64,000 nt of DNA from Clavelina lepadiformis (taxonomy: Eukaryota; Chordata; Ascidiacea; Aplousobranchia; Clavelinidae), in assembly GCF_947623445.1 (NCBI RefSeq), contig NC_135247.1, forward strand, positions 14,634,501 to 14,698,500, in the 5' to 3' direction. The position numbers and the translations under genes are program-made. This document shows, in pieces, positions 34,988-64,000 of the stretch. The notes beneath the pieces were generated by a model. That model was not told the DNA's origin and searched no databases. It saw nothing but the letters and a program-made list of their open reading frames with translations. How positions within the stretch are numbered: position 1 is the stretch's first letter; each line of letters opens with the position of its first letter.

Positions 34988-37900
34988 CTAGACATTGAAA
35001 GCTTCTTTCGCCGCCATTAGCGCATCCATTGCGTTCGGAGAGAGCCTGAGATCTTCGATAGTTCGACCGGTGAACCGACTATCATAACCCTTGTAAGTGA
35101 TCCATTTTTCTTCCAAATCTCCCTTCGTGTGATTTCCATCAAACCTGGATGTGAAAGAAATGAACAAAATCAACGTGGCATTTCACATAGGAATGCCCAG
35201 TTTCAACTGGAATGGTTGGATACCACCTCTTATTCTCATTGCACGATACAATGCGATTTACATTATGACTATATCAGTGTACAGTCGAATCCGCTTAATT
35301 CGGACAACGGATAACCCGGACAACCGCTTTATTCGGCCAAAATGCTCGGGAACGGAACAAAAGTAAAAATTGAACGTAAAAAACTCCTGTTAATTCGGAC
35401 ACAGGTTCGCAATTCCATCGTTAGGTTATGAAACTTATGATACAATAAACAGTACTTCGTTTTAAGACAAGATTCAATTGCATTATGAGTGATTATGGTG
35501 AAACAATGACGATCAATGCAGTAACAATCGACAATGAACTGATATAAGGCCGTGCCAGCTTCATAGTCGCTTTTACTTCGGTACAATTGTTCCATCTTGT
35601 AGGACAAATTGTACAGAAAAGTTTAGCACAAAAAGTGAAATTGCTCACTAAAGTAAACGAAGACGTTTTATGCGATCAGTGCCAGTTACTGCAGTATAGT
35701 GCAGCTGCAATTCATTTATTACGCAACACTACAGTATTTTAAATGCATTTTTTGCCTTTATGCATGACCATGAAATGAACAATTGATTTTCCGCTTAATT
35801 CGGACAAAGCCGTTTCTCCGCTTAATTCGGCCAAAAGTGAGCGGAACCAAAGTGTCCGAATTAAGCGGAGTCGACTGTATTTATGAATGAATTTATACGT
35901 TATAAACTGTTATAGCACTGATCTTTGCGGCGTGTCCTTCATTTTGTGGCTTGTGGCAGATAGGTATAATCATGCCAACGTCTTAACCGATAAAAAATTA
36001 AACTTCCAGGAAGTTTCTTCTCGCTAAATGTTAACGTAACCTGAACTTCATTACATGCTACTATCAATCTATCACCCAAATTAACCCCTTAATCTGATCG
36101 ATATGAATGAAATTGAACTGTTCGCGTATCTTCCTAACCAGCTCACTACATTCAACAACGCAATTTGCCAGCAAATAGTAGCTACTAAGCTAAGGGTGTG
36201 GTTGAATGATTGTTTTACCGAGTGACGTTGTCATCATCAGTATAAATGTTTGTCACTTTTCCTTGATGGTATCTAGCGCCTCCAGTGTTGTTTCCATCTG
36301 TTCCCCCGTAGCTACCTTGGGAGAAAAGCACGATCGTTCCTATACCAATCTCTTCAATGCTTGGAGTAACGTCTAAGGCAACATCCTGGAAGAAACACCA
36401 ATGCATATCAGGGTTGCTTTTTGAGTAGCGACAAGGGTTGAGATACTTAGGTAAAACCTATTCTAAAGTTAATATAATTCCATTGTAGCTTACGTCCAAT
36501 GACACACACAGAAAACACGGAAAAACGCAACCCTTGGTTATTGCGCTTGACAAAAAAATGCAAACCTTATAAGATTGTTCTCTTCCAGTTGGATCTCCAT
36601 CGTCCCACGTCACAGTATAAGTCATTGTTGCTTCATCAAAACTGTCGATAGTCGCCATGAAGTAAGCCCAGCGCTGGTGTAAACAAACCACGTGATCTCC
36701 GAGCACTGGTGCCCGGAATTTGAGTTTTTCAGCGCTTGGTTCAACAGCGCCCGCAAGTACTGGAACGCCTTCTTCAATAACCTTGCTCAATTTCTCCCTT
36801 ACAAAATATTTTATTGTTATTGGTCTGTTGTCACCGACAGAATTTCATCGCGGCGAAAACGGCTTCTGCAACTCGGTTTTCTGCTGAGTATATGCTACCT
36901 CAGCTCTCGTATTTTTTCGTCCATATCTGAAGTATTGGAAACCTGCTGAAAATCAACGCTCGGTAGACCCTCCTGTATCAACTTTCCCACTGCTGTTTGC
37001 TTCCATAAACCACCTTTGCCTGCCCGAAGGAAGTAAAAACTGTCTTGGTTGTTTGTCTTTTTGGTATAGATAGATGTCGCTGTATTGGTCGTTATTACAT
37101 TACTTACCTACTATCAGAGCAACAATTGGTTTATTCAGTGACTTGGCGGCGAACTGAAATTCCATTCTGCAGTTGTCGCTACTGGCATATTCAAAGCTAA
37201 TACATGCCACGACGAATTTGCATTCGTTCATCGCCGATGCTATCTGACCGAACTGAAACAGAAAACATTTTACGATCCATTTCTGAAATCAATTAATAAT
37301 ACAACAAGAATGCATGATTGCATGTAAATCAAAAGGAAAAGTAGCCTACGCCAAAGTAACGGTTCTCGTTTAGTAGCCTAGTTGTGCAATGCAATCGAGG
37401 CAAAAATTATTATTAGCCTATTATATTAGAAACATTCTTTTCTTTAATTTGGCCAGCCATATTACAAACATAGCACAATATAGCCGCAGTCAATATTTTG
37501 CAAGAGTGCACATTTTTATAATTCCACAATGGTTCAAAATTGAAAAATTAGTTTATTTTTTTAATTATACCATTCCCAATCCGTCTCCCATTGCGCTTTC
37601 CAGGCGTTCAATGTCAAGCCAAGACTTCATGTTTGTGGAAGAAGCAAGTTTAGAAACTATCAAACGTGGATCACTCCACTTTTGTCCGACACACTCCTGA
37701 ATTTGCTTCTTTTCCAACGCATCAGTTGAATTAAACCAACAGTAGCTGAAGAAGAAATCCGCTTTTTCAGATATAAGAGGCTTGCCTGAAAAAATTAATT
37801 TAACGAAAAAATAGGTTTGGTGTGTGTGATATGCATTTGATGATGATGTTAAGAAAAAATAGATATGATGTTCTGCTTTATTAAAGATAGACTTTGTCGA

Positions 37901-40900
37901 GGTTTTCGTTGTCGGAAATTTGTAGTAACTTATTCACCTGGGATTTGAAAAACTTTACAATGCATTTTATACGATTCATTTAATTCTAATAAAATCATCA
38001 ACACTTTTAATAAGATCTCCCGTTATGACGGCTATAAAGCTGGAGTGACATTAATAAAACTTCTTACCAGTGACACCAATTCCGGGTTCATCATGCAATG
38101 GTAATTGAGCTCCATCAATGGCTGCATACTGAGCGTTTCGGATTTCAAGATCCGGAATATTGTTCCTGATTGCTCTTGCCAATTCTGTCATCTTGGCTCC
38201 CTGCACTTCCTTGTTCTTGAAGTGGATGTACAGTTCACCAGCAATGAGAAGACCAACCACCGTCATTTGCCATTGAAATGATCCGGTGCCCACCTATAAA
38301 GACGGCGATATAGTAGGCCTAAAGCATCTGGACTTGAACATTATGCGACATGATACGTGTTGCAAACAAAACAGACTTTCTACTGCCAATGTTTAATTAC
38401 CAAAGAATTCAATAAAAATACAAACCACAAGCGGAATGACAGGAATTTTTAGGGTCTTCTTCGCGTACTGAAACTCCATCCTACATCGATCACTGCTGGC
38501 GTATTCATCGCTCAAACATGCAATAAAAACCTTTACTCGTTTCATAGCATTTACAACCTCAAGTAAGGAACTGTTACCGTCGTCTTCTTGAATGAATACT
38601 TTTATTCCTATATGTATAGCTAAAGTAAATTTTCATGACTGGGCTTATTTATCGTCTTGGTTAGAGATAGAGTCTATTATAGATAGACTAATGCAAGGCT
38701 AATGGCTAAACATCTGCTACGAGTAAACATACGTATCATCAAATATAATGTAATTTTAAAAAAGGTAAAGAAAAGGCATATTGCTATAAAGATTTCAAAC
38801 TGACCCATTGCTTTTAGCTGACGCACAATCTCTCTAGGATCGCACATGCTTTGAACAACAGCTTCTTCATAAGATGGTGGCAAATCGTCTTCTATCTCTT
38901 TTGCTTGGATAGCTGATGGACAGTTGATCTTTGCGTAGGAAACAAAGACATCCAACCTGCTTTGTTCATCTTCTTCTTCCTCTTCTTCATTATCTTCGTT
39001 TAAAAATGAGTTCATACATTTCAGGGTCGATTCAACAATGAACCTCATGAAAGATTTAACTTAAGGAAGCTACGTGCCATACCGGAACCCGTCTGCGCTG
39101 AAGACAAGATATCGAAGACATTCGGCGGCATCCTGAAATCTTCAAGGGAATATCCCGCAAAAGTTCTACCGTATCCCTACAGCCAAAGCATAATCAAAAC
39201 AAATTTTGTAGCAGAAATAGAACAGACAATATTGGGATAAGTTGGGATAAATGCTAGGATAAGTTACATCACGTCCTAGTAGCAGACGTGTTGAAAATAA
39301 TCTCAACGCGTTCAAAAGACATTTCAATTATACGTTACCGACTAAGCAACCAAATGAAATAACCTGATTCATTTCAATCGTTTGGTTTCATCAACATCAT
39401 GTTTAAATGCAACTTTAATTATTATTCTTAAAGGAACCTTAAATGTGCACCATTTTCCGTCAGCTTCGCCTTTTGTATGGCGGCCATCATATCGCTTTTG
39501 TCCTGTGGGATTCTCATAGATCCGTTCAATTTCACCCTCGTGCCACCGCAAACCCCCGCTTCGAGTGATACCATGGACCTCTTGTTGTTTGTATCTTAAA
39601 AGAACATTTACATAAAAACTACAGATATACAAACTGGCAAAGTTAAACGTTTTTCGGTTATTTGAAAACCAACTAGAAAGAATGCTGCAGCAGTTTGCGG
39701 AAATTTATGTCAGAATCATTATATAGTAAACTATAGCTTATAGCTGACTATAAGCTAGAAAAGTGAAGCAGAATTAAACCACTTTCGGACGTACTGGCCT
39801 TGATGAAATAGAACTTTCGATCCAACACCAATCTGATCCACCGTCGGAACTTTATCGAGAGCAAGGTTGAAGTAATCCACTTGTCTACCAGTTGGGTCGT
39901 GATCGTCCCATTCTATCGTGTATTTCAGTTTATCTTTGTTGAAACTTTCTATCGTTGCTACAGATGAGATTAAAATTAATAAACGCAAACACCATCATGA
40001 TAATAATTACTAGGCTATTCATTTACAGCTAAGCTATCACAGATAATGACATTTCACAATTTATTGTCAGAAAGCAGGAAAAGAACATAATCATAATTTA
40101 GAGTATCAGAAAACAATTTTTTTAATAATAAAAAAGTTGGTTCAAAACTAATTTCTGTTTATTTTTACCCGTAAAATATTGCCACTTGCTTCCCGACCAC
40201 ATTGCTACCACGTGATCACCGACCCCAGGCAAGTTCCTTTCATCGCCTTCTCCTGTATCTACCGTAATTGCCTGCCCGGGGTTAATCTTTTTGGGTTGCT
40301 AGAATTTGCCATGGTTAGATTAAAATCGCTTACACTATAAACTATTTTAGATGTATTTTTCATATATTTGTACGTATGTATTTGTATGTACTTCCATTTT
40401 TGGTCATTGGATTAAGTTAACCATACTATAAACTGGTATTTTGCATACCATGCTAAAGTTAGCTTATAGAGTATTATAGACTATATTGACCCGATGGTTA
40501 CAAAAACATATCGTCTCCAGAGCAAACCTGCGGTTTGGTAATGATTGTTTGAGACGTAGCGACTGAAATCTGTAGCGTAAGTTCATTGACTTTTTTTCGT
40601 AACTTTTCGACTTCGCGCTCAAGTTTCTTGTATTTTATATCCAACTCCTTGTTTGTTGCTACTTTGGAGTTCAAAGGTGACCCTGTGAAAGAGAATCACC
40701 CTAACTAATTTTCCCGTTTTTTTTAAATTAAATATTTTTTGTAAAAACTTAACCTTAAAATAAGTTCATATATTCGGTAATTTTTATTCCGAAATGTATT
40801 CTGTAATCATAAACTTATATATAATCAAAACCCACCTTGAGTGCTGCGCGATAATATGCTGGCAACGGATTTTACCCTTTCATTAGTAGGAAAGCCAAGA

Positions 40901-41454
40901 GCGTCGACTTCATCATCTAGTGAAATACAACCAAACTCTATGACTGAACCAGCTTCGTTCTGTTTGTAAGCTTATACCGTAATTACCTTTATGTCAATTG
41001 TCTGAAAATAACGCGAAGTGGGAAAATACTTAAAGTTAAAAGTCAACGGCTTTGTGCAAGACAAATATGTTGGGCTATGAAAGGAACGTTTTCGTTAAAG
41101 AAAATCTTTTTTCAACAGTGAGCTAAGGCGAATCTTGTAATAGCTTAATTTTTAACGTTACACTTTTAAAATAATTTTAATGCATTATTGCTTTACGATA
41201 CACATCTAAACCTAGTAAACTGAGAATGTTAGCCACAACCTACAGTAGTTAATTTTATCATATTTGTAAATTTGTTAAGAGACATTTCATCCACTAACCG
41301 TTAGAAAACCACTCTGAACAAGATTTAACGCTAGATCTTGACGGAAAACGTCTTGGTCTTTGGTTATTGGCGACGTCTTTTCTGGAAAAATCTTTTTTTC
41401 TCGGTTTTCTTGCTGCAGATGACGAAGAGCCCATTTTGTAAGCTGATATTGCAT
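34988..41454 (-). CDS. Novel-looking protein with two TIR domains and two Tudor-like pairs
   Basis: Sixteen exons on the minus strand fit with matching phases: 41454-41299, 40959-40836, 40682-40528, 40298-40169, 39957-39795, 39594-39438, 39176-39083, 38993-38805, 38607-38426, 38293-38068, 37785-37571, 37252-37108, 37043-36899, 36797-36566, 36385-36219 and 35144-34988. The sum is 2637 bases, or 878 residues. In order: an N-terminal helical part; a coiled coil (about 100-140, LDIKYKKLEREVEKLRKK); a Tudor/Agenet-like pair (about 160-325, GVGDHVVAMW, TIEWDDHDPTGR); and an acidic linker. Next come TIR 1 (about 340-525, LDVFVSYA, ASSDRCRMEFQYA) and TIR 2 (about 532-670, ADFFFSYCWF, ASSDNCRMEFQFA). 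A short helix and a second Tudor-like pair (about 720-878, VTWDDGDPTGR) finish it. TIR domains signal by assembly or cleave NAD; Tudor-like folds often bind methylated peptides. Joint function is unknown. The exon 8 acceptor is the least certain site. Confidence 0.8.
35282..35877. mobile_element. Pogo-type MITE, copy 1, in the last intron of the TIR/Tudor gene
   Basis: The 596-bp element starts CAGTCGAATCCGCTTAATTC and ends GAATTAAGCGGAGTCGACTG, inverted repeats of about 24 bases with one main mismatch. TA dinucleotides flank both ends (35280-35281 and 35878-35879), as expected for pogo/Tc1-mariner insertion. The CCGCTTAATTCGG motif recurs internally near the ends. It lacks a transposase. A nearly identical copy lies at 47154-47767. 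Confidence 0.88.
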
Positions 41455-50981: not shown

Positions 50982-53350
50982 TTATCGCCAATCACATTCT
51001 GGCTCCCAAAACATTTCAACTTTTAAACTGGTAATTCCTTTACTTTTCGCATGTTGGGTTAAGAAGCTCTCGTAGCGACATGAGGGGTTCGTCCACATCA
51101 TCCCAGGTGCTTCCTGATTTGTGTTATTTCTTAGATGTTTGGGAACGGTTTTATCTGACGCACATGGCACAAGAGCGGAAAAGTAACTTAGCTCGGCATA
51201 CCCACGAAAGGCTCTCCCAGCTAGGTCTGATACCTTATCAGGTACAGTGGATAAAACAGCGTCAAAGATTTCTAGCAATGATTTCCAGCTGACGCCAGGC
51301 TCCCTAATGATGAAACATCGCAATGAGCTGTACTTTGCTTGGGATTTCATCAGGTTTGCCATATCGTGAGCATGGCTTTCTTTCATGTCACAATGATCGA
51401 CACAAAAGGAACGAATACTAGACAACGATTTGGCAAACAACGGAAGAAATCTTTTCCATAATTTTAAGTTATTTGTCAAAGTGAATTCACGGTGAAGTCT
51501 CAACGAGGGCAATGCAGACATGTTGCCTTTTCCTGGAAAGCTTTGTGATGAGTGATTAGACATGGTTAACCATTCCATGGCCTCAGGTGTGATACTTCCA
51601 TCAGCGAATTCCAGTGAAATTAAAGAGTCCGGAAGATGTAAACCATTATCTTGAATGCTGTTGGTATTGTCACAGAACGACATACGAATTCTGCTAAATT
51701 CCACTATCTTAAGCTTAGTCCAGTGTACAAAGATGTTGTTCCATATTGTACAGGTCTGCAAAAAAAAAAAACTGGTTTCATATTTTTGTTTAAGTTAAAA
51801 ATTGTATATAAAAATTCATTTCATATAGTAAATAATATAAATATACAAAATACAACGAAGTTGTAACATATTGACATCTTATAGGCAAAGCGTATTGAAA
51901 TCCATATGCAGTAACAAAGTAGAACATTCCATGCGACCTCATTGAAGGTAAAATCGATCGGCTGCCGATCACACGAAGCAAGCGAAAATTCCTCCAAGTT
52001 GACTAAGCGTGATAATCCTTTTTTTGTCTCAAAGATTGACTTTGGGTAGACATGACGAAATTCCAATTTGCGAATGTCCCAAGGATTCACTAACGTCTGC
52101 AAGATTTGCTCCACTTTACTGGAACATACGTCCTCAAACCTATATGCAAGAAAGGAATACATGTATAGGCCTATATTAAGACACAAGATAAAGATAAATA
52201 TTATGTATGCTATACACAACAGCTTCTAACACCAGGAATTACGCAGTGAATAAATACTTTACCTAATTGAAGCGAGATCCACTGCGAAACCGTTTATATA
52301 AGACTTTCGAAGAATTGACAGCAATACGTCCGAGAACCAGTCATAGGATGAACCGATAACAGCCATTTCCAGTTTTATGGAAGGCATTGTGAAATCGATT
52401 TGTTCTGGAATGTACATTGTTATTTTAAAGCTAAGTAATACAATTCAACTTTACACCTTATATTTGAAAAGCTGCGATCAGAGATTTATGCAATATTAGC
52501 ACACAATTAATAAAAGTAATAGACTACTAATACCTTTCTTCAGTGGTAAAATTAGGTTTTCGTTTTTGTCCGTCGTTGGTTCAAGTGCCAGTTTCAAAGC
52601 GGTTAATGCCGCCCTTGTGCAATGAACGTTTCCATTTTCATTGCGTAAGTCCAATGTTTTTAACGGATGCCTTTGCTGGCGATGCCTTACTTTGTCACAA
52701 ATCTGCTTGACGGATTTTCTCAGAAATGTGTTGTTTGCATGAGTGTGTAATGAGCATGGATCAAAGCAGGTATGCCGTGACAGATAAACACCCGCATTTT
52801 GATCGTCTTGTGCGACACACGAGTTGACTGGAAATGGCAACTGACAGATGTCATTGCACAGAAGAAAGCCTTCCACACTATACATTACCAACCGCTGCCT
52901 CATTGTTAGTGATAAACTGATTGGAAATGATCTCTCCACTAAACAGGATGGTGAAAAAGTATCATCTGTCCAAGTCGCCATAACGACGTAAGTGCAATGT
53001 CTTGATAATGCCATTGCTCGAAACCGCCATTCTGGACTCTTATCCACTTTTTCAGCAAACGGACAATCTGGTGAATGTTTTGTTTCGACCCAGAGCCTCA
53101 TCTTGCAGTTAGCATTCTTACAATCCTTTTGTTCACCAGAAAAACGAGCATGGCCTTTGTCTAACGTCAGTATGAAAATTCGCATTACATCTAATAGAGT
53201 CGATCGCGGCAACAGTTTACTCGTAACGAAAGTAAGTAACATTTCGCCCGACGATGAGATGTTGCTTTCGTTGATTAAACGATCAAACATTGCTTTAGCG
53301 ATTGATTGCCTGCACCATGCAGAGAGAGATAATGGCTTACAATTTGACAT
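50982..53350 (-). CDS. PRAME/LRRC14-like leucine-rich repeat protein, intact copy
   Basis: Four exons, 53350-52534, 52404-52263, 52139-51938 and 51755-50982, have matching phases and give 1935 bases, 644 residues. The order follows PRAME and LRRC14. First is an N-terminal helical block (SIAKAMFDRLINES, then FVTSKLLPRSTLLDVM) and a Cys-containing insert (DCKNANCKMRLW). Next is HPLKTLDLRNEN, the linker FTMPSIKLEMAV corresponding to the IPVEV segment, and leucine-rich repeats (ILQTLVNPWDIRKLEF, GLSRLVNLEEFSLAS, PDSLISLEFADGSI), then a C-terminal repeat block (SSLRCFIIREPGVSW). Vertebrate members serve as Cullin-2 substrate receptors (PRAME) or modulators of NF-kB signalling (LRRC14). Which role applies here is unknown. 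At 644 residues it is longer than either (about 500). A disabled tandem copy lies 8 kb upstream. Confidence 0.8.
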
Positions 53351-55423
53351 TTTATTCGCTTGGATGTAACTATGGAACCTTTAAAAGCAAATTATTGAAA
53401 CCCCTTAACATAACGTAACTAAATAACTAACTAAAAACTACGAACTAAATCGTATTATCTTAAGTATTATTTTTGTATTATTATTAATACAGTATTATCA
53501 TCACACCTTCCAAAGATTATTATCATTGGTGTGTATTGTTGCTCTACAAACTCGGGCTAACCAACACGCCCTTCTTTTGTGCTATGGCCACCAGAAACCG
53601 GGATGGGGTTTCTTTTACCGTGGGTTTATTATCCCATCCACTGATGTACAGCATTGAAGCAATTTTAAATCACCAGTTTCTTGAACACACCACCTGCTTG
53701 TCTATTTAATTTTTCGCTTTTTTAAGCTTATGTTTTATGGATTTAACTTAAGTATAGGTTTAGTGGTGGTGCTAGTTGTTGCCAGCAATTGGCACGTATT
53801 AGTAACAACTGGCTTGATTTTATGTCCCCACCACACTTTTGACGAAAAATAAATGAATGAAATGCATATTTAGGACAACAGTGCATCATTTCAGCTATTT
53901 AGCGATATGTTGCACAAACCACACTTACAAAGCCAAATTAACATGCATGAAGGCAAGAGTTTCATTGCTGTATTGTTGTAACGTAGATGTGGGGAAGTTA
54001 TTATGTTCTCAGTGCTATATTGAACAAGGCTCGCTGGGTTGGCAATTAAATACTGATTAGTGTCAGGTGATGCTTATCTTCAGCATAGAAATTAAGGTTA
54101 GTAAGGCCAATAAAGCTACAGCTAAAAGGCAAAATTTTCCTGCACTTAAGTATGTTTAAACCTTCAAACCAAAGGCTACTTGCTTGTGGATGTCTAGCCA
54201 TAAACACCAAAGCCTTTCTATTCAGTGCTCACAGACCAACAGTAAATCAAACCCGTTGCCGTCATGCACATAGTCACATTAGAAAATAGAAGCCAACGTT
54301 GATCATAACATCATTGAAAAATTCTTTGTTTGGTATAGTTAGTACTTACCGACAAATCATTTTTGGTTTAAGTTCGACGTATCGTTAACAGTAGGCTAGC
54401 TCACCCTTCAACGAACAGCCACTACTGTACTGCCCGCTTCAAACAATGACGCACTGTACGGTTGACTGAATGTGTAATTACAGTACTGTGTTACACAGGG
54501 TCTTTTCTCTTTTTTAATGGGCGCTCTCCACGGCGTGCGGTTATTACATCTTGCCCTCAGCTCCAAATGTAGGTTACAAGGAAACATCTGCTCAGATCTG
54601 CAGCAGCAGCTGTCAGTTTGATCATTTCCTCTAATCGGTTGATCAATCATCCTGACACATGATTCTACAAAAGCAATAAAGCGACTTCTACAATAGCGGG
54701 TTGTGTAACGCAAAGTAGCATACGCCAGTGACAAAAAATTCACAAAAATAATTATTAGTTTTGATGCTCTGAAAACAGATATTTCTGTTAGCATATTGCT
54801 ACTATACTTTATAGTTAGGTTCTTTACTTCTTTGTGCTGATTCAAAATCTTAAAAACTCATGGCCACACAGCTCCTGCTTTGTTAAGTCGATATTTGAAA
54901 AATTTTAATAAAGGAATGTCGAAATGTTAATGTACGCCCAAATCTACAATAAAAACTGGTCAAGAGTTGCAAATGAAAAGTGTTATTTCAGGAGTGAGTA
55001 TTACACCGTAAGTAGGTCACGCAGCCTATTGTTAAACAAATGATTAGCTTAGTTAGAAGAATGGGAGAATGAGAGAATGGGAGAACGGAATGGAGAATGG
55101 AACACGTTTGCAACTAATGTACGCATTGAATAAAGCGAATTCTGACGCATATGGCTAACCATATGTTTGGTCACCAACCCCTTTAAAGAATTTTTGAAGA
55201 CTGCGAAACTCACGTAAAGGAATCTCAAAAAATTACTAAATTTTTAACTTTTGCGTGTCGTAATACGGAATTGTTGCTATACTACAACAATCCTTCCACG
55301 AAATCATATAATATTCTTTTTAAGCGTACTGTATTACTGTCATGTTCTTATTTTGCAGCACAAAACCACCTTCGAGTCACAAAACCACCTGAATAAGTGC
55401 AGGCGAGATTCATCAGTGTAGAG
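53351..55423. other. 5' flank of the PRAME-like gene, partly duplicated at 63.9 kb
   Basis: No gene is supported. The segment about 54575-54700 (CAAGGAAACATCTGCT, TCAGTTTGATCATT, AAAGCAATAAAGCGACTT) is matched by 63910-63990, upstream of the disabled copy. A minus-strand frame of 145 codons at 54845-54408 runs through it but shows no domain and is not preserved in the other copy. Confidence 0.45.
55056..55101 (+). repeat. Short purine-rich minisatellite
   Basis: Several imperfect units of GAATGGGAGAAT-like sequence follow one another. The run grows out of a dispersed repeat whose sister at 27339-27412 has only one such unit. Confidence 0.6.
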
Positions 55424-61298: not shown

Positions 61299-63452
61299 TC
61301 AACCTCTGAACTGGTAATCCAACTCGAAACTACTCGTCGGGTCGCTTTTCCAAATCATCCAAGATCCTCTTAACATTTCGGGAACAATTTGATCTGACGC
61401 GAATGGCACATGAGCGGAAAAGTAACTCGTTTCTGTATGCTCACGAAAGATTGTCCCACTGTTCGTGACCTCATCCGGTAAAGCGGATATAACAGCGTCG
61501 AAGATTTTTAACAAAGATTCCCTGCTGACGTTTCGCTCCCTGATGCCGAAACGTCGCAATGAGCTACATTTTGCTCGGGAAGTTACCAGGTTTATCAAAT
61601 CGCGAGCTTGGTTTTCGTTCAAGTTGCAATGATCGAAGCTGAAGGATCGAATGCAAGACAAATATTTTTCAAAAAACTGAAGAAAGCTATTCCACAATTC
61701 TAAGTTTCTTGTCAAAGAGGTTTCGCACTTTAGCCTCAAACAGGATAATGCAGACGTGTTGTCTTTTCCTGAAGAGATTTGCGATGTGTTTAGCTGTTCG
61801 TAACACCTGGCTAACCATTCCAGGGCTTCAGCTGTGATGCTTTCATGGGCAAATTTCAGGGAAATTAACGAGTCCGGAAGATGTAAAGCATTACTTTGGA
61901 AGCCCTTGGCATTGTCACAGAACGACATACGAATGCCGCTAATTTTCACTGCCCTGAGCTTAGGCCAGTGAACAGGTCTGCAAAATAAAACAAATTGGTT
62001 TCACATTTTTGTTTCAGTTAAAAATTGCATTTAAAACTCCATTTAATGTAGGAAAACATTGTGTGATACCTCAGTGAAGGAAAATTTGTCTGATTGCGTT
62101 GTCCACGAAGCAAGCACAAATTTTTCTAAATTGACTAAACGTGATAATCCTTCTCTCGCCTGAAAGATTGAGTTCGGATCGTGGTGGTAAAAATTTATTT
62201 TGCGAATGTCCGCAGGATTCACTACCGTCTGCAAGATTTGCTCTACTGTACTAAAACAGACGTTCTCAAACCTGCAGTATGTACAAGAAATTGAACTATA
62301 TTATGATATACTTTACAAAATAAGAAATCTTATCAGAGAAGCTTCCAAGGAACACCAGGACTTGCTAAATATTTTACCTAATTGAAGCAAGATCCACTGC
62401 GAAACCGTTGTATCAGACTCTCGTAGAATTGACAGCACTTCCTTCGAATACATGTCGAAGGGTGTTTCGATATAAGCTAATCCCAGTTTTATTGAAGGAA
62501 TTTCCAAATTGTGTTGTTCTAAAAAATAAGTTTTGTTATTTTAAGCTAAAGCTATTTATATTTACTCAAAGATTTATGCTATAGGCTAGCTATATGCTTA
62601 TTTGTTTTATGCAAATATTAGACTTTTAATACCTTTCTTTATTGGCAAAGTTTTTTTTTTATTTTTGTCCGTCCTTTGTTGTAGTGCCCATATCAACATG
62701 TTTATCACCTCATCCGTTATGAACTGAGCGTTTTCAATATCCTCGCGTAAGTCCAACGTTTTCAACGGATGCCTTTGTTGCTTTTAAATAATCTCGTTAC
62801 GGATCTGCTGGACGGAGTTATCCAGAAACGCGTTGTTTGCATGAGTTTGTCTTGCATCCAAGCTATAATAACTACAAATATGCGAAAGGAAAACACTTGC
62901 AAATGAATTAGCTTGCTGACTAGATAGATTGACCAAAAATGCCGATTGACTGATGTCGTTACATAGAAGGAAGCCATCCACAGCAAATAATATCAACCAC
63001 TATCTCATTGTTAGTGATAAACCGATTGGAAATGATTCCTCCACTAAACAGGATGGTGAAAAGCTATCTTCAGTCCAAGTCGCCATAACGACGTAAGTGC
63101 AATGTCTTGATAATGCCATTGCTCGAAACCGCCGCTCTTGATTCTTATCCGCTACTGCAGCATACGTATGAGAATGAATTATCATCACGCGCCACCTCAT
63201 ACCCTCGCTGCCGGTATTGCTACAATCTTTTTGTTCATAAGTAAAATGAGCGTGACCTTTGTCTAACGTCAGTATGAAAGCTCGCATTACGTCTAATAAA
63301 GTTAATCGCGGCAGCAGTTTACTCGTAACGAAAGTAAGTAGCATTTCGCACGACCACAAGATGTTACTTTCGTTGATTAAACGATCAAACATCGCTTTAG
63401 CGATTGATTGCCTACACCACTCATACAGAGAAAGTGGGTTAATAGTTGACTT
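61299..63452 (-). pseudogene. PRAME/LRRC14-like pseudogene, tandem copy of the gene at 50982-53350
   Basis: The four-exon layout of the intact gene is kept: 63452-62633, 62518-62378, 62271-62070 and 61977-61299, with the same splice positions. Several lesions disable it. The start codon position reads AAG instead of ATG. Exon 1 has TAG right after SLTMR (near 62999-63001, where the intact copy has CAG) and TAA after NEII (near 62784-62786). Exon 2 is 141 rather than 142 bases, shifting frame. Exon 4 lacks 23 bases near its start, shifting frame again. Parts of the protein remain readable, for example LLTFVTSKLLPRLTLLDVM and the C-terminal repeat block. The gene probably decayed after a local duplication. 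Confidence 0.88.
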
Positions 63453-64000
63453 TTTTATTCGCTTGGATGTAACCTTTATAACAACAACAGAAAATTAATA
63501 GAGTGAGACCATTATGTAGGCCACGTAATGTATGTGATGTAATAAACAAACTGACATTACTGTCGTAGCACCGGATCACCAACAAATACCCTTTTAGAAA
63601 ATTTGCTATTTGAGTTACTTTACAAATTATAGAGAGCAGATTAAAGTTGTGTAAGCCAGCTATAATATAAAGCAAATATAAAATCCAATGTCGAAACATT
63701 TCATTGCGGATACAGCTTAATTACGCAATCACACACTTCAACGTAGGATCACTGTCCCCTTCCGAGCACTGTTTAACTGTCTGTGTCTTACCAGACTGCT
63801 CAATGCGTAATGGTTACTTGTACTGCAATAGACTTTTTCCTTTTTTTGTATTTAAAAAATGCACTATCCAACGTGCTATTGACGACGTTATTCCTCCGCC
63901 ATATGTGGGCCACAAGGAAACATCTGCTACCGTCAGTTCGTTGATCGATCGTTGTTGTGCAATCAAAGAAAAGGCAATAAAGTGACTTATGCAATTGTGA
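63453..64000. other. 5' flank of the pseudogene
   Basis: The end of the window (about 63900-63990) is similar to 54575-54700, so the duplication that produced the pseudogene included upstream sequence. The homologous block lies about 450 bases from the old start here but about 1200 bases from the start in the intact copy. No gene is supported. Confidence 0.45.

What the first reader, a model, noticed from the sequence alone, without database searches (positions are those of the whole stretch)
34988..41454. Gene joining two TIR domains with two flanking Tudor-like pairs
Sixteen exons with consistent phases encode one chain ordered coiled coil, Tudor-like pair, TIR, TIR, Tudor-like pair. TIR domains are innate-immune or NAD-cleaving modules, whereas Tudor-like folds usually read modified peptides. 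I know of no well-described animal protein with this order. Flanking TIRs on both sides with likely peptide readers suggests a sensor in which binding controls TIR assembly. That mechanism is inference.
Basis: partly seen in the sequence, partly recalled or inferred. Interest (0 to 1): 0.88.

Follow-up and report, generated by a model that had tools for sequence, protein, structure and literature searches.

The report
Sea-squirt gene joining TIR and Tudor-like domains
A sea-squirt gene appears to encode one protein in which two immune-type TIR domains sit between Tudor-like domains that may read modified peptides, a combination I could not find described, although no RNA evidence yet shows that it is one transcript.

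Summary
The exons are real. On the minus strand, 16 exons between 34988 and 41454 join, all GT-AG with matching phases, into 870 codons without a stop. Pfam finds two TIR_2 domains and one Tudor domain above curated cut-offs. The second Tudor-like block is below cut-off on its own but 41% identical to the first. That each block is a "pair" of Tudor folds is not shown: the second half has only sub-threshold support. Contig lengths point to Clavelina lepadiformis, chromosome 8. No second copy was found. Its two TIRs are each other's nearest relatives among those compared, and no further Tudor-like block of this kind was found in the genome. Both TIRs keep the glutamate aligned with that of Cat1 TIR. 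The exon 7-8 junction, which decides whether the first Tudor and the TIRs share one chain, is the one most open to doubt. The Tudor-gated TIR mechanism is inference. I rate it a new variant of a known kind: a new assembly of known domains. Paper searches in an open-licence library showed no TIR-Tudor protein.

The parts
41299..41454 (-). exon 1, residues 1-52, first ATG of the open frame
   Evidence: GT donor, phase 0
40836..40959 (-). exon 2, residues 53-94
   Evidence: strong donor
40528..40682 (-). exon 3, residues 94-145, heptad-like coiled-coil stretch about 100-140
   Evidence: weak coiled-coil families only
40169..40298 (-). exon 4, start of N-terminal Tudor-like block
   Evidence: Tudor_3 173-211
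39795..39957 (-). exon 5, N-terminal Tudor-like block, W-D-D core
39438..39594 (-). exon 6, second half of N-terminal Tudor-like block
   Evidence: no Pfam match of its own
39083..39176 (-). exon 7, end of N-terminal Tudor-like block
38994..39082 (-). intron 7 (89 nt), the critical Tudor-to-TIR junction: donor 4th and acceptor 12th of 15 by crude score; no AATAAA/ATTAAA on this strand between 39418 and 38607
38805..38993 (-). exon 8, acidic linker, TIR1 start, PPSY motif at residue 365
38426..38607 (-). exon 9, TIR1 core with glutamate 434
   Evidence: also found by the TIR_2 genome search
38068..38293 (-). exon 10, TIR1 end and linker; strong donor
37571..37785 (-). exon 11, TIR2 start; no ATG upstream in its open frame
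37108..37252 (-). exon 12, TIR2 core with glutamate 628
   Evidence: (27.1 bits, just under the family cut-off there)
36899..37019 (-). exon 13, TIR2 end
36566..36797 (-). exon 14, first half of C-terminal Tudor-like block
   Evidence: single-sequence AlphaFold2 model too weak to use
36219..36385 (-). exon 15, C-terminal Tudor-like block
   Evidence: (DUF4819 below cut-off)
34988..35144 (-). exon 16, end of C-terminal Tudor-like block and stop codon
35280..35879 (.). inverted-repeat (MITE-like) insertion inside the last intron; not part of the protein
   Evidence: 27-nt arms, 96% complementary

Best explanation
A tunicate gene, of which no second copy was found, encodes one 870-residue intracellular protein: coiled coil, Tudor-like block, TIR1, TIR2, Tudor-like block. 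Shown here: the gene model, the two TIRs, the first Tudor, and that the matching parts are internal duplicates. Inferred: the protein is intracellular; the coiled coil pre-assembles it; the N-terminal Tudor binds a peptide, plausibly methylated; that binding changes how the covalently linked TIR1-TIR2 pair packs. The TIRs are then either NAD+-cleaving enzymes or a nucleus for TIR filaments. The two TIRs are not equivalent: TIR1 has lost the aspartate of the W-I-D motif, which 11 of the 12 other TIR rows compared keep, and TIR2 has a loop six residues longer than theirs. This suggests a built-in asymmetric pair in which one TIR completes the other's active site. Where the protein resides and what it binds are unknown.
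For: Continuous 870-codon frame over 16 exons. TIR_2 and Tudor_3 over curated cut-offs. All 16 matches of the protein search lie at this locus (only the best candidates are scored). Tudor-like blocks 41% identical to each other, and a genome search with the C-terminal block up to E of 10 finds only this gene (4 candidates scored). TIR1 and TIR2 share 43% over 95 aligned positions against at most 29% to 12 other TIR rows, and are sisters with support 99.9/100. The glutamate in the C-x-x-E motif is kept in both, aligned with Cat1 TIR, and is present in all 14 rows compared. The N-terminal Tudor has W179, W205 and D207 in the columns of 53BP1 W1495, F1519 and D1521 (numbering recalled).
Against: No transcript evidence. 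The acceptor at the exon 7-8 junction ranks 12th of 15. The C-terminal Tudor-like block lacks the W1495 position through a two-residue gap, and Y1502/Y1523 have no clear counterpart in either block. Profile comparison with the 53BP1 tandem Tudor is weak (hhalign probability 4%, E 0.0095), the Tudor-like profile's only PDB match is not significant (E 0.28), and the N-terminal block alone matches only unrelated chains at chance level. The one structure prediction collected failed (pLDDT 47). The glutamate is shared by all TIR rows compared, including array TIRs of unknown activity, and does not by itself prove NADase activity.
Confidence: 0.35

Rival explanations
1. The protein is a non-catalytic TIR adaptor: the tandem TIRs recruit other TIR proteins, such as the many TIR-NACHT proteins of this genome, and the Tudor-like blocks only place or regulate the adaptor.
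For: The same genome has 77 TIR_2 places at E up to 0.001, two of them in this gene, including a TIR-NACHT array, so partners abound; TIR1 has lost the W-I-D aspartate. A PPxY motif, PPSY at residue 365, would suit recruitment of WW-domain ligases (recalled).
Against: Both TIRs keep the aligned glutamate, which many signalling-only TIRs lack (recalled); the TIRs are distant from the array TIRs (branch 1.8).
Confidence: 0.33
2. Two genes, possibly co-transcribed as an operon as known in tunicates (recalled): a coiled-coil Tudor-like protein (exons 1-7) and a TIR-TIR-Tudor-like protein (exons 8-16).
For: Exon 7 can read on to a stop at 39045, exon 8's open frame has upstream in-frame ATGs at 39048 and 39015, and the intron 7 acceptor ranks 12th of 15.
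Against: No AATAAA or ATTAAA on this strand between 39418 and 38607. The 89-nt intron has the 4th best donor of 15 and a matching phase; 3 accepted introns have worse acceptors. Even under this split TIR2 stays fused to the C-terminal Tudor-like block, because exon 11 has no ATG upstream and exon 10 has a strong donor.
Confidence: 0.17
3. The Tudor-like blocks are SH3-like barrels used for structure or nucleic-acid contact, not readers of modified peptides.
For: Only part of the 53BP1 cage is kept, the C-terminal block has lost its tryptophan position, and second halves lack significant Tudor matches.
Against: Tudor_3 is over its cut-off in the N-terminal block and its W, W, D positions are kept.
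Confidence: 0.35
4. A decaying or artefactual gene: chance open frames or a pseudogene.
For: No expression data; a transposon-like insert lies in the last intron.
Against: 870 codons without a stop where about 54 stops are expected, GT-AG at all 15 introns, and motifs kept in both copies although only 36-44% identical.
Confidence: 0.03

Closest known systems
SARM1 (ARM-SAM-SAM-TIR)
   Same: Animal intracellular TIR protein with an oligomerising part and, by inference, a glutamate-dependent TIR (SARM1 facts recalled).
   Different: No ARM or SAM match here; two TIRs instead of one; Tudor-like blocks instead of ARM.
Cat1, CRISPR-associated TIR (PDB 9mud)
   Same: Best PDB match of the two-sequence TIR profile (E 0.0056) with the glutamate aligned; only E 0.22 with the single protein.
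   Different: Only about 67 residues align; from a prokaryotic CRISPR system (recalled); no Tudor (recalled).
53BP1 / Crb2 tandem Tudor and LBR Tudor
   Same: Pfam Tudor_3 over cut-off for the N-terminal block; 43% identity over 37 residues (E 0.003) to a Tudor_3-matching place of the same genome that reads like LBR (LBR name recalled).
   Different: Second barrel not shown; cage only partly kept; fused to TIRs.
Conserved invertebrate TIR-domain proteins (ecTIR-DC class, cited in PMC6321704)
   Same: Non-TLR, invertebrate TIR proteins, some with several other domains (passages read).
   Different: Membership could not be tested; no Tudor is mentioned in that paper's main text (0 occurrences).
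TIR-NACHT genes of the same genome
   Same: TIR_2 domains.
   Different: The TIRs compared are at most 29% identical to this gene's and lie outside its pair in the tree; NACHT in the unit examined.

Membership tests
TIR_2 (PF13676) domain family | Pfam score over curated cut-off for each copy | tested here: met
   TIR1 47.6 and TIR2 32.2 bits against 28
TIR NADases | Conserved glutamate in the C-x-x-E region | tested here: met
   E434 and E628; aligned with Cat1 and with all 12 other genome TIR rows; that it is catalytic is recalled
TIR NADases | NAD+ cleavage | not testable with these tools
   needs an enzyme assay
Tudor_3 (PF18115) | Score over cut-off, N-terminal block | tested here: met
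   33.6 bits in the whole protein, 26.5 for the segment alone, cut-off 25.8
Tudor_3 (PF18115) | Score over cut-off, C-terminal block | tested here: not met
   12.9 bits; homology rests on 41% identity to the N-terminal block
53BP1-type tandem Tudor methyl-lysine readers | Second Tudor barrel | tested here: inconclusive
   DUF4819 below cut-off only in the C-terminal block; hhalign aligns only the first barrel
53BP1-type tandem Tudor methyl-lysine readers | Complete aromatic cage | tested here: inconclusive
   W, W (for F) and D kept in the N-terminal block, two tyrosines not clearly matched; tryptophan lost in the C-terminal block (cage positions recalled)
SARM1 | ARM and SAM domains beside the TIR | tested here: not met
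   no such Pfam match listed up to E of 1
Toll-like receptors | Leucine-rich repeats | tested here: not met
   no LRR match listed up to E of 1
Toll-like receptors | Transmembrane helix | not tested
   no predictor used
ecTIR-DC invertebrate TIR proteins | Falls in a named ecTIR-DC group | not testable with these tools
   reference sequences not on hand

The most novel reading that the evidence does not exclude
A modified-peptide-gated tandem TIR enzyme: the Tudor-like blocks sense a methylated (histone or pathogen-altered) peptide and switch a built-in asymmetric TIR1-TIR2 pair that cleaves NAD+, linking chromatin or protein methylation state to TIR-type immunity or cell death in a chordate.
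Probability: 0.15. Interest if true: 0.85.

Novelty: new variant of a known kind. Interest (0 to 1): 0.52.

Why it matters
TIR domains are mostly known behind leucine-rich repeats, ARM/SAM, NACHT or immunoglobulin parts (recalled). A chordate TIR protein whose likely sensors are Tudor-like readers would be a new input for TIR signalling. It is directly testable with purified domains, because the two TIRs are already covalently paired. The internal duplication in mirrored order (Tudor-TIR-TIR-Tudor) is also a puzzle of gene evolution, as simple tandem duplication would not give it.

Tried and rejected
Bacterial or viral relatives of the Tudor-like block: none confirmed. 37 pattern matches in GTDB genomes and 80 in IMG/VR, with none confirmed by tblastn in either; both searches used a two-sequence profile. 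PDB search with the N-terminal block alone gave only chance matches. NCBIfam gave weak TIR-related matches far below cut-offs, PADLOC none. A DUF4819 genome search found nothing, and the control rang nowhere either. Structure: the exon 14 model had mean pLDDT 47 from one sequence, so no fold search was run on it; the exon 6 job was still unfinished when last asked. The spliced protein was not handed to structure prediction because its stated rule asks for proteins that the DNA gives letter for letter; single exons were used instead. hhalign of the Tudor-like profile with 53BP1 was weak; the TIR profile as an unrelated control gave E 0.31. Literature: no TIR-Tudor protein seen (30 of 91 papers listed; 15 of 186 listed; 1 paper; 7 papers); only listings and abstract beginnings were seen. 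Main-text term search of PMC2575513 (amphioxus TIR combinations), PMC7075850 (TIR survey), PMC6321704 and PMC11797021 showed 0 occurrences of 'tudor' (passages only, no supplements).

A first gene model had two wrong splice positions and was corrected. The first TIR alignment contained five wrong-strand rows (L002, L003, L006, L007, L044); re-oriented four of them, left out L044 and L043 (L043 is the same place as the row L034c), and added L008.

Full report
Source. The window lies at G000:C8:14634501-14698500 of a 209,060,895-base genome in 95 contigs. Contig lengths C4 25.07, C5 24.62, C6 20.77, C7 20.45, C8 19.51 and C9 15.73 Mb equal those in Table 2 of the Clavelina lepadiformis genome note; C1 is 28.78 here and 28.79 there (PMC10884593, passages read). 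C2 and C3 were not compared. I take the window to be chromosome 8 of that sea squirt; no marker gene was checked (did not complete).

Gene model. I rebuilt the gene from open frames, sequence and splice-site scores. After one corrected attempt, 16 minus-strand exons join into 870 codons plus stop, all 15 introns GT-AG with matching phases, 88-1074 nt long. The other two frames of the joined sequence have 43 and 62 stops; about 54 stops are expected by composition, and GC is 0.443 in exons against 0.332 in introns. Splice sites were chosen to keep the frame open, so the open frame is partly by construction; by a crude score 5 of 15 acceptors are below zero. A whole-genome search with the protein returned 16 matches, all at this locus, so no second copy was found at that sensitivity.

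Domains. In the whole protein Pfam gives TIR_2 (71 bits, cut-off 28, two stretches) and Tudor_3 at 173-211 (33.6 bits, cut-off 25.8). Alone, TIR1 has 47.6 and TIR2 32.2 bits, the N-terminal Tudor-like block 26.5 bits. The C-terminal block reaches no cut-off (PTM_DIR17_Tudor 18.7 of 27.2; DUF4819 17.8 of 27; Tudor_3 12.9 of 25.8), but is 41% identical to the N-terminal block over its length, sharing for example GDHVV, YF-ATI-SF, WDD-DPTGR and DG-HTKG. So the two blocks are homologous. That each is a pair of Tudor barrels stays unproven: the second half has no significant family match, and the PDB profile search gave only a non-significant match (7de9, named only 'Transcriptional regulator', E 0.28).

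Internal duplication. TIR1 and TIR2 align at 43% identity over 95 positions, against at most 29% with 12 other TIR rows of the genome (the rows are a sample of the 77 places and some are near-identical copies). In a tree of these 14 they are sisters (99.9/100) on a branch of 1.8 substitutions per site. A genome search with TIR2 ranks TIR1 far above the rest (E 6e-10; next outside this gene 0.007). A search with the C-terminal Tudor-like block up to E of 10 finds only this gene's own two blocks (4 candidates scored). Reading, none of the five introns inside the Tudor-like blocks (three in the first, two in the second) and none of the four inside the TIRs is at exactly the same position in both copies; the introns at 450/451 in TIR1 and 646 in TIR2 are only about four nucleotides apart and may share an origin. 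The duplications are therefore probably old. The mirrored order Tudor-TIR-TIR-Tudor is not what a simple tandem duplication would leave.

Functional residues. Both TIRs keep the glutamate of the C-x-x-E motif (E434, E628), aligned with Cat1 TIR in PDB 9mud (E 0.0056) and present in all 14 rows compared. That this glutamate is catalytic in SARM1 and plant TIRs is recalled. TIR1 has Q where 11 of the 12 other rows have the aspartate of W-I-D and is one residue shorter near there; TIR2 keeps the aspartate and has six extra residues in the following loop. The N-terminal Tudor has W179, W205 and D207 in the columns of 53BP1 W1495, F1519 and D1521, but T188 and D209 where 53BP1 has Y1502 and Y1523. 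The alignment is ambiguous by one residue near Y186-F187. The C-terminal block has a two-residue gap at the W1495 position (53BP1 numbering recalled, its sequence checked). A PPSY (PPxY) motif lies at residue 365 in the TIR1 insert.

Could it be two genes? The junction that decides whether the N-terminal Tudor-like block and the TIRs share a chain is exon 7-8. For one chain: matching phase, the 4th best donor of 15, an 89-nt intron close to the 88-nt intron 12, and no AATAAA/ATTAAA on this strand between 39418 and 38607. Against: the acceptor ranks 12th of 15 (introns 1, 3 and 13 are worse), and exon 8's open frame has in-frame ATGs upstream at 39048 and 39015. Tunicates are known to use operons and spliced leaders (recalled), so a split is possible; I give it 0.17. 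At the TIR1-TIR2 junction a split is less likely: exon 10 has a strong donor (9.4) and exon 11's open frame has no ATG before TIR2, though poly(A)-like hexamers do occur in that intron. So TIR plus Tudor-like block in one chain (exons 8-16) survives even the split model.

Mechanism. Most likely, but inferred: an intracellular, coiled-coil-assembled protein in which Tudor-like binding of a peptide controls packing of a built-in asymmetric TIR pair, with NAD+ cleavage or TIR scaffold output. Nothing here tests binding, activity or location. Structure prediction did not help: one exon at pLDDT 47, one job unfinished.

Known or new. Paper searches for TIR with Tudor showed nothing relevant: one unrelated review, seven papers that from titles and abstract beginnings do not concern such a protein, listings of 30 of 91 and 15 of 186 papers. 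Four TIR-related papers searched by term hold no 'tudor' in the main text. The amphioxus paper reports 20 of 28 TIR domain combinations as amphioxus-specific (PMC2575513, passages), so odd TIR combinations in invertebrate chordates are themselves a known kind. The library holds open-licence papers only, and no other animal genome was on hand to search, so absence from other animals is not shown. I therefore rate this a new variant of a known kind.

Noticed in passing
G000:C4 0.77-3.42 Mb (outside the window); unit seen in L031: Tandem array of TIR-NACHT (TIR-NLR-like) genes in this sea squirt: 27 of the 28 TIR_2 places examined (28 of the 30 listed on C4) have a NACHT place 1.9-9.7 kb downstream on the same strand, 15 of them at 1.93-1.95 kb; one unit confirmed with Pfam TIR_2 and NACHT.
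   Followed up: partly
G000:C5 22.5-23.9 Mb: A second dense array of TIR_2 places whose partner domains were not determined; among open frames of 75 codons or more in L030 I recognised only TIR pieces, by eye.
   Followed up: no
window 35280-35879: MITE-like element with 27-nt terminal inverted repeats (96%) and further inner copies of the repeat, inside the last intron of the gene.
   Followed up: partly
window 38805-38993: PPxY motif (PPSY, residue 365) in an insert of TIR1, the type bound by WW-domain ubiquitin ligases (recalled).
   Followed up: no
window about 31.3-34.5 kb, + strand: Convergent neighbour that looks like bifunctional CoA synthase: Pfam CoaE over cut-off, adenylyltransferase-like frame upstream (by eye).
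   Followed up: partly
window 50985-53380 and 61302-63494, - strand: Two sets of similar long open frames that look like diverged copies of one gene, perhaps with leucine-rich-repeat-like sequence (by eye only).
   Followed up: no
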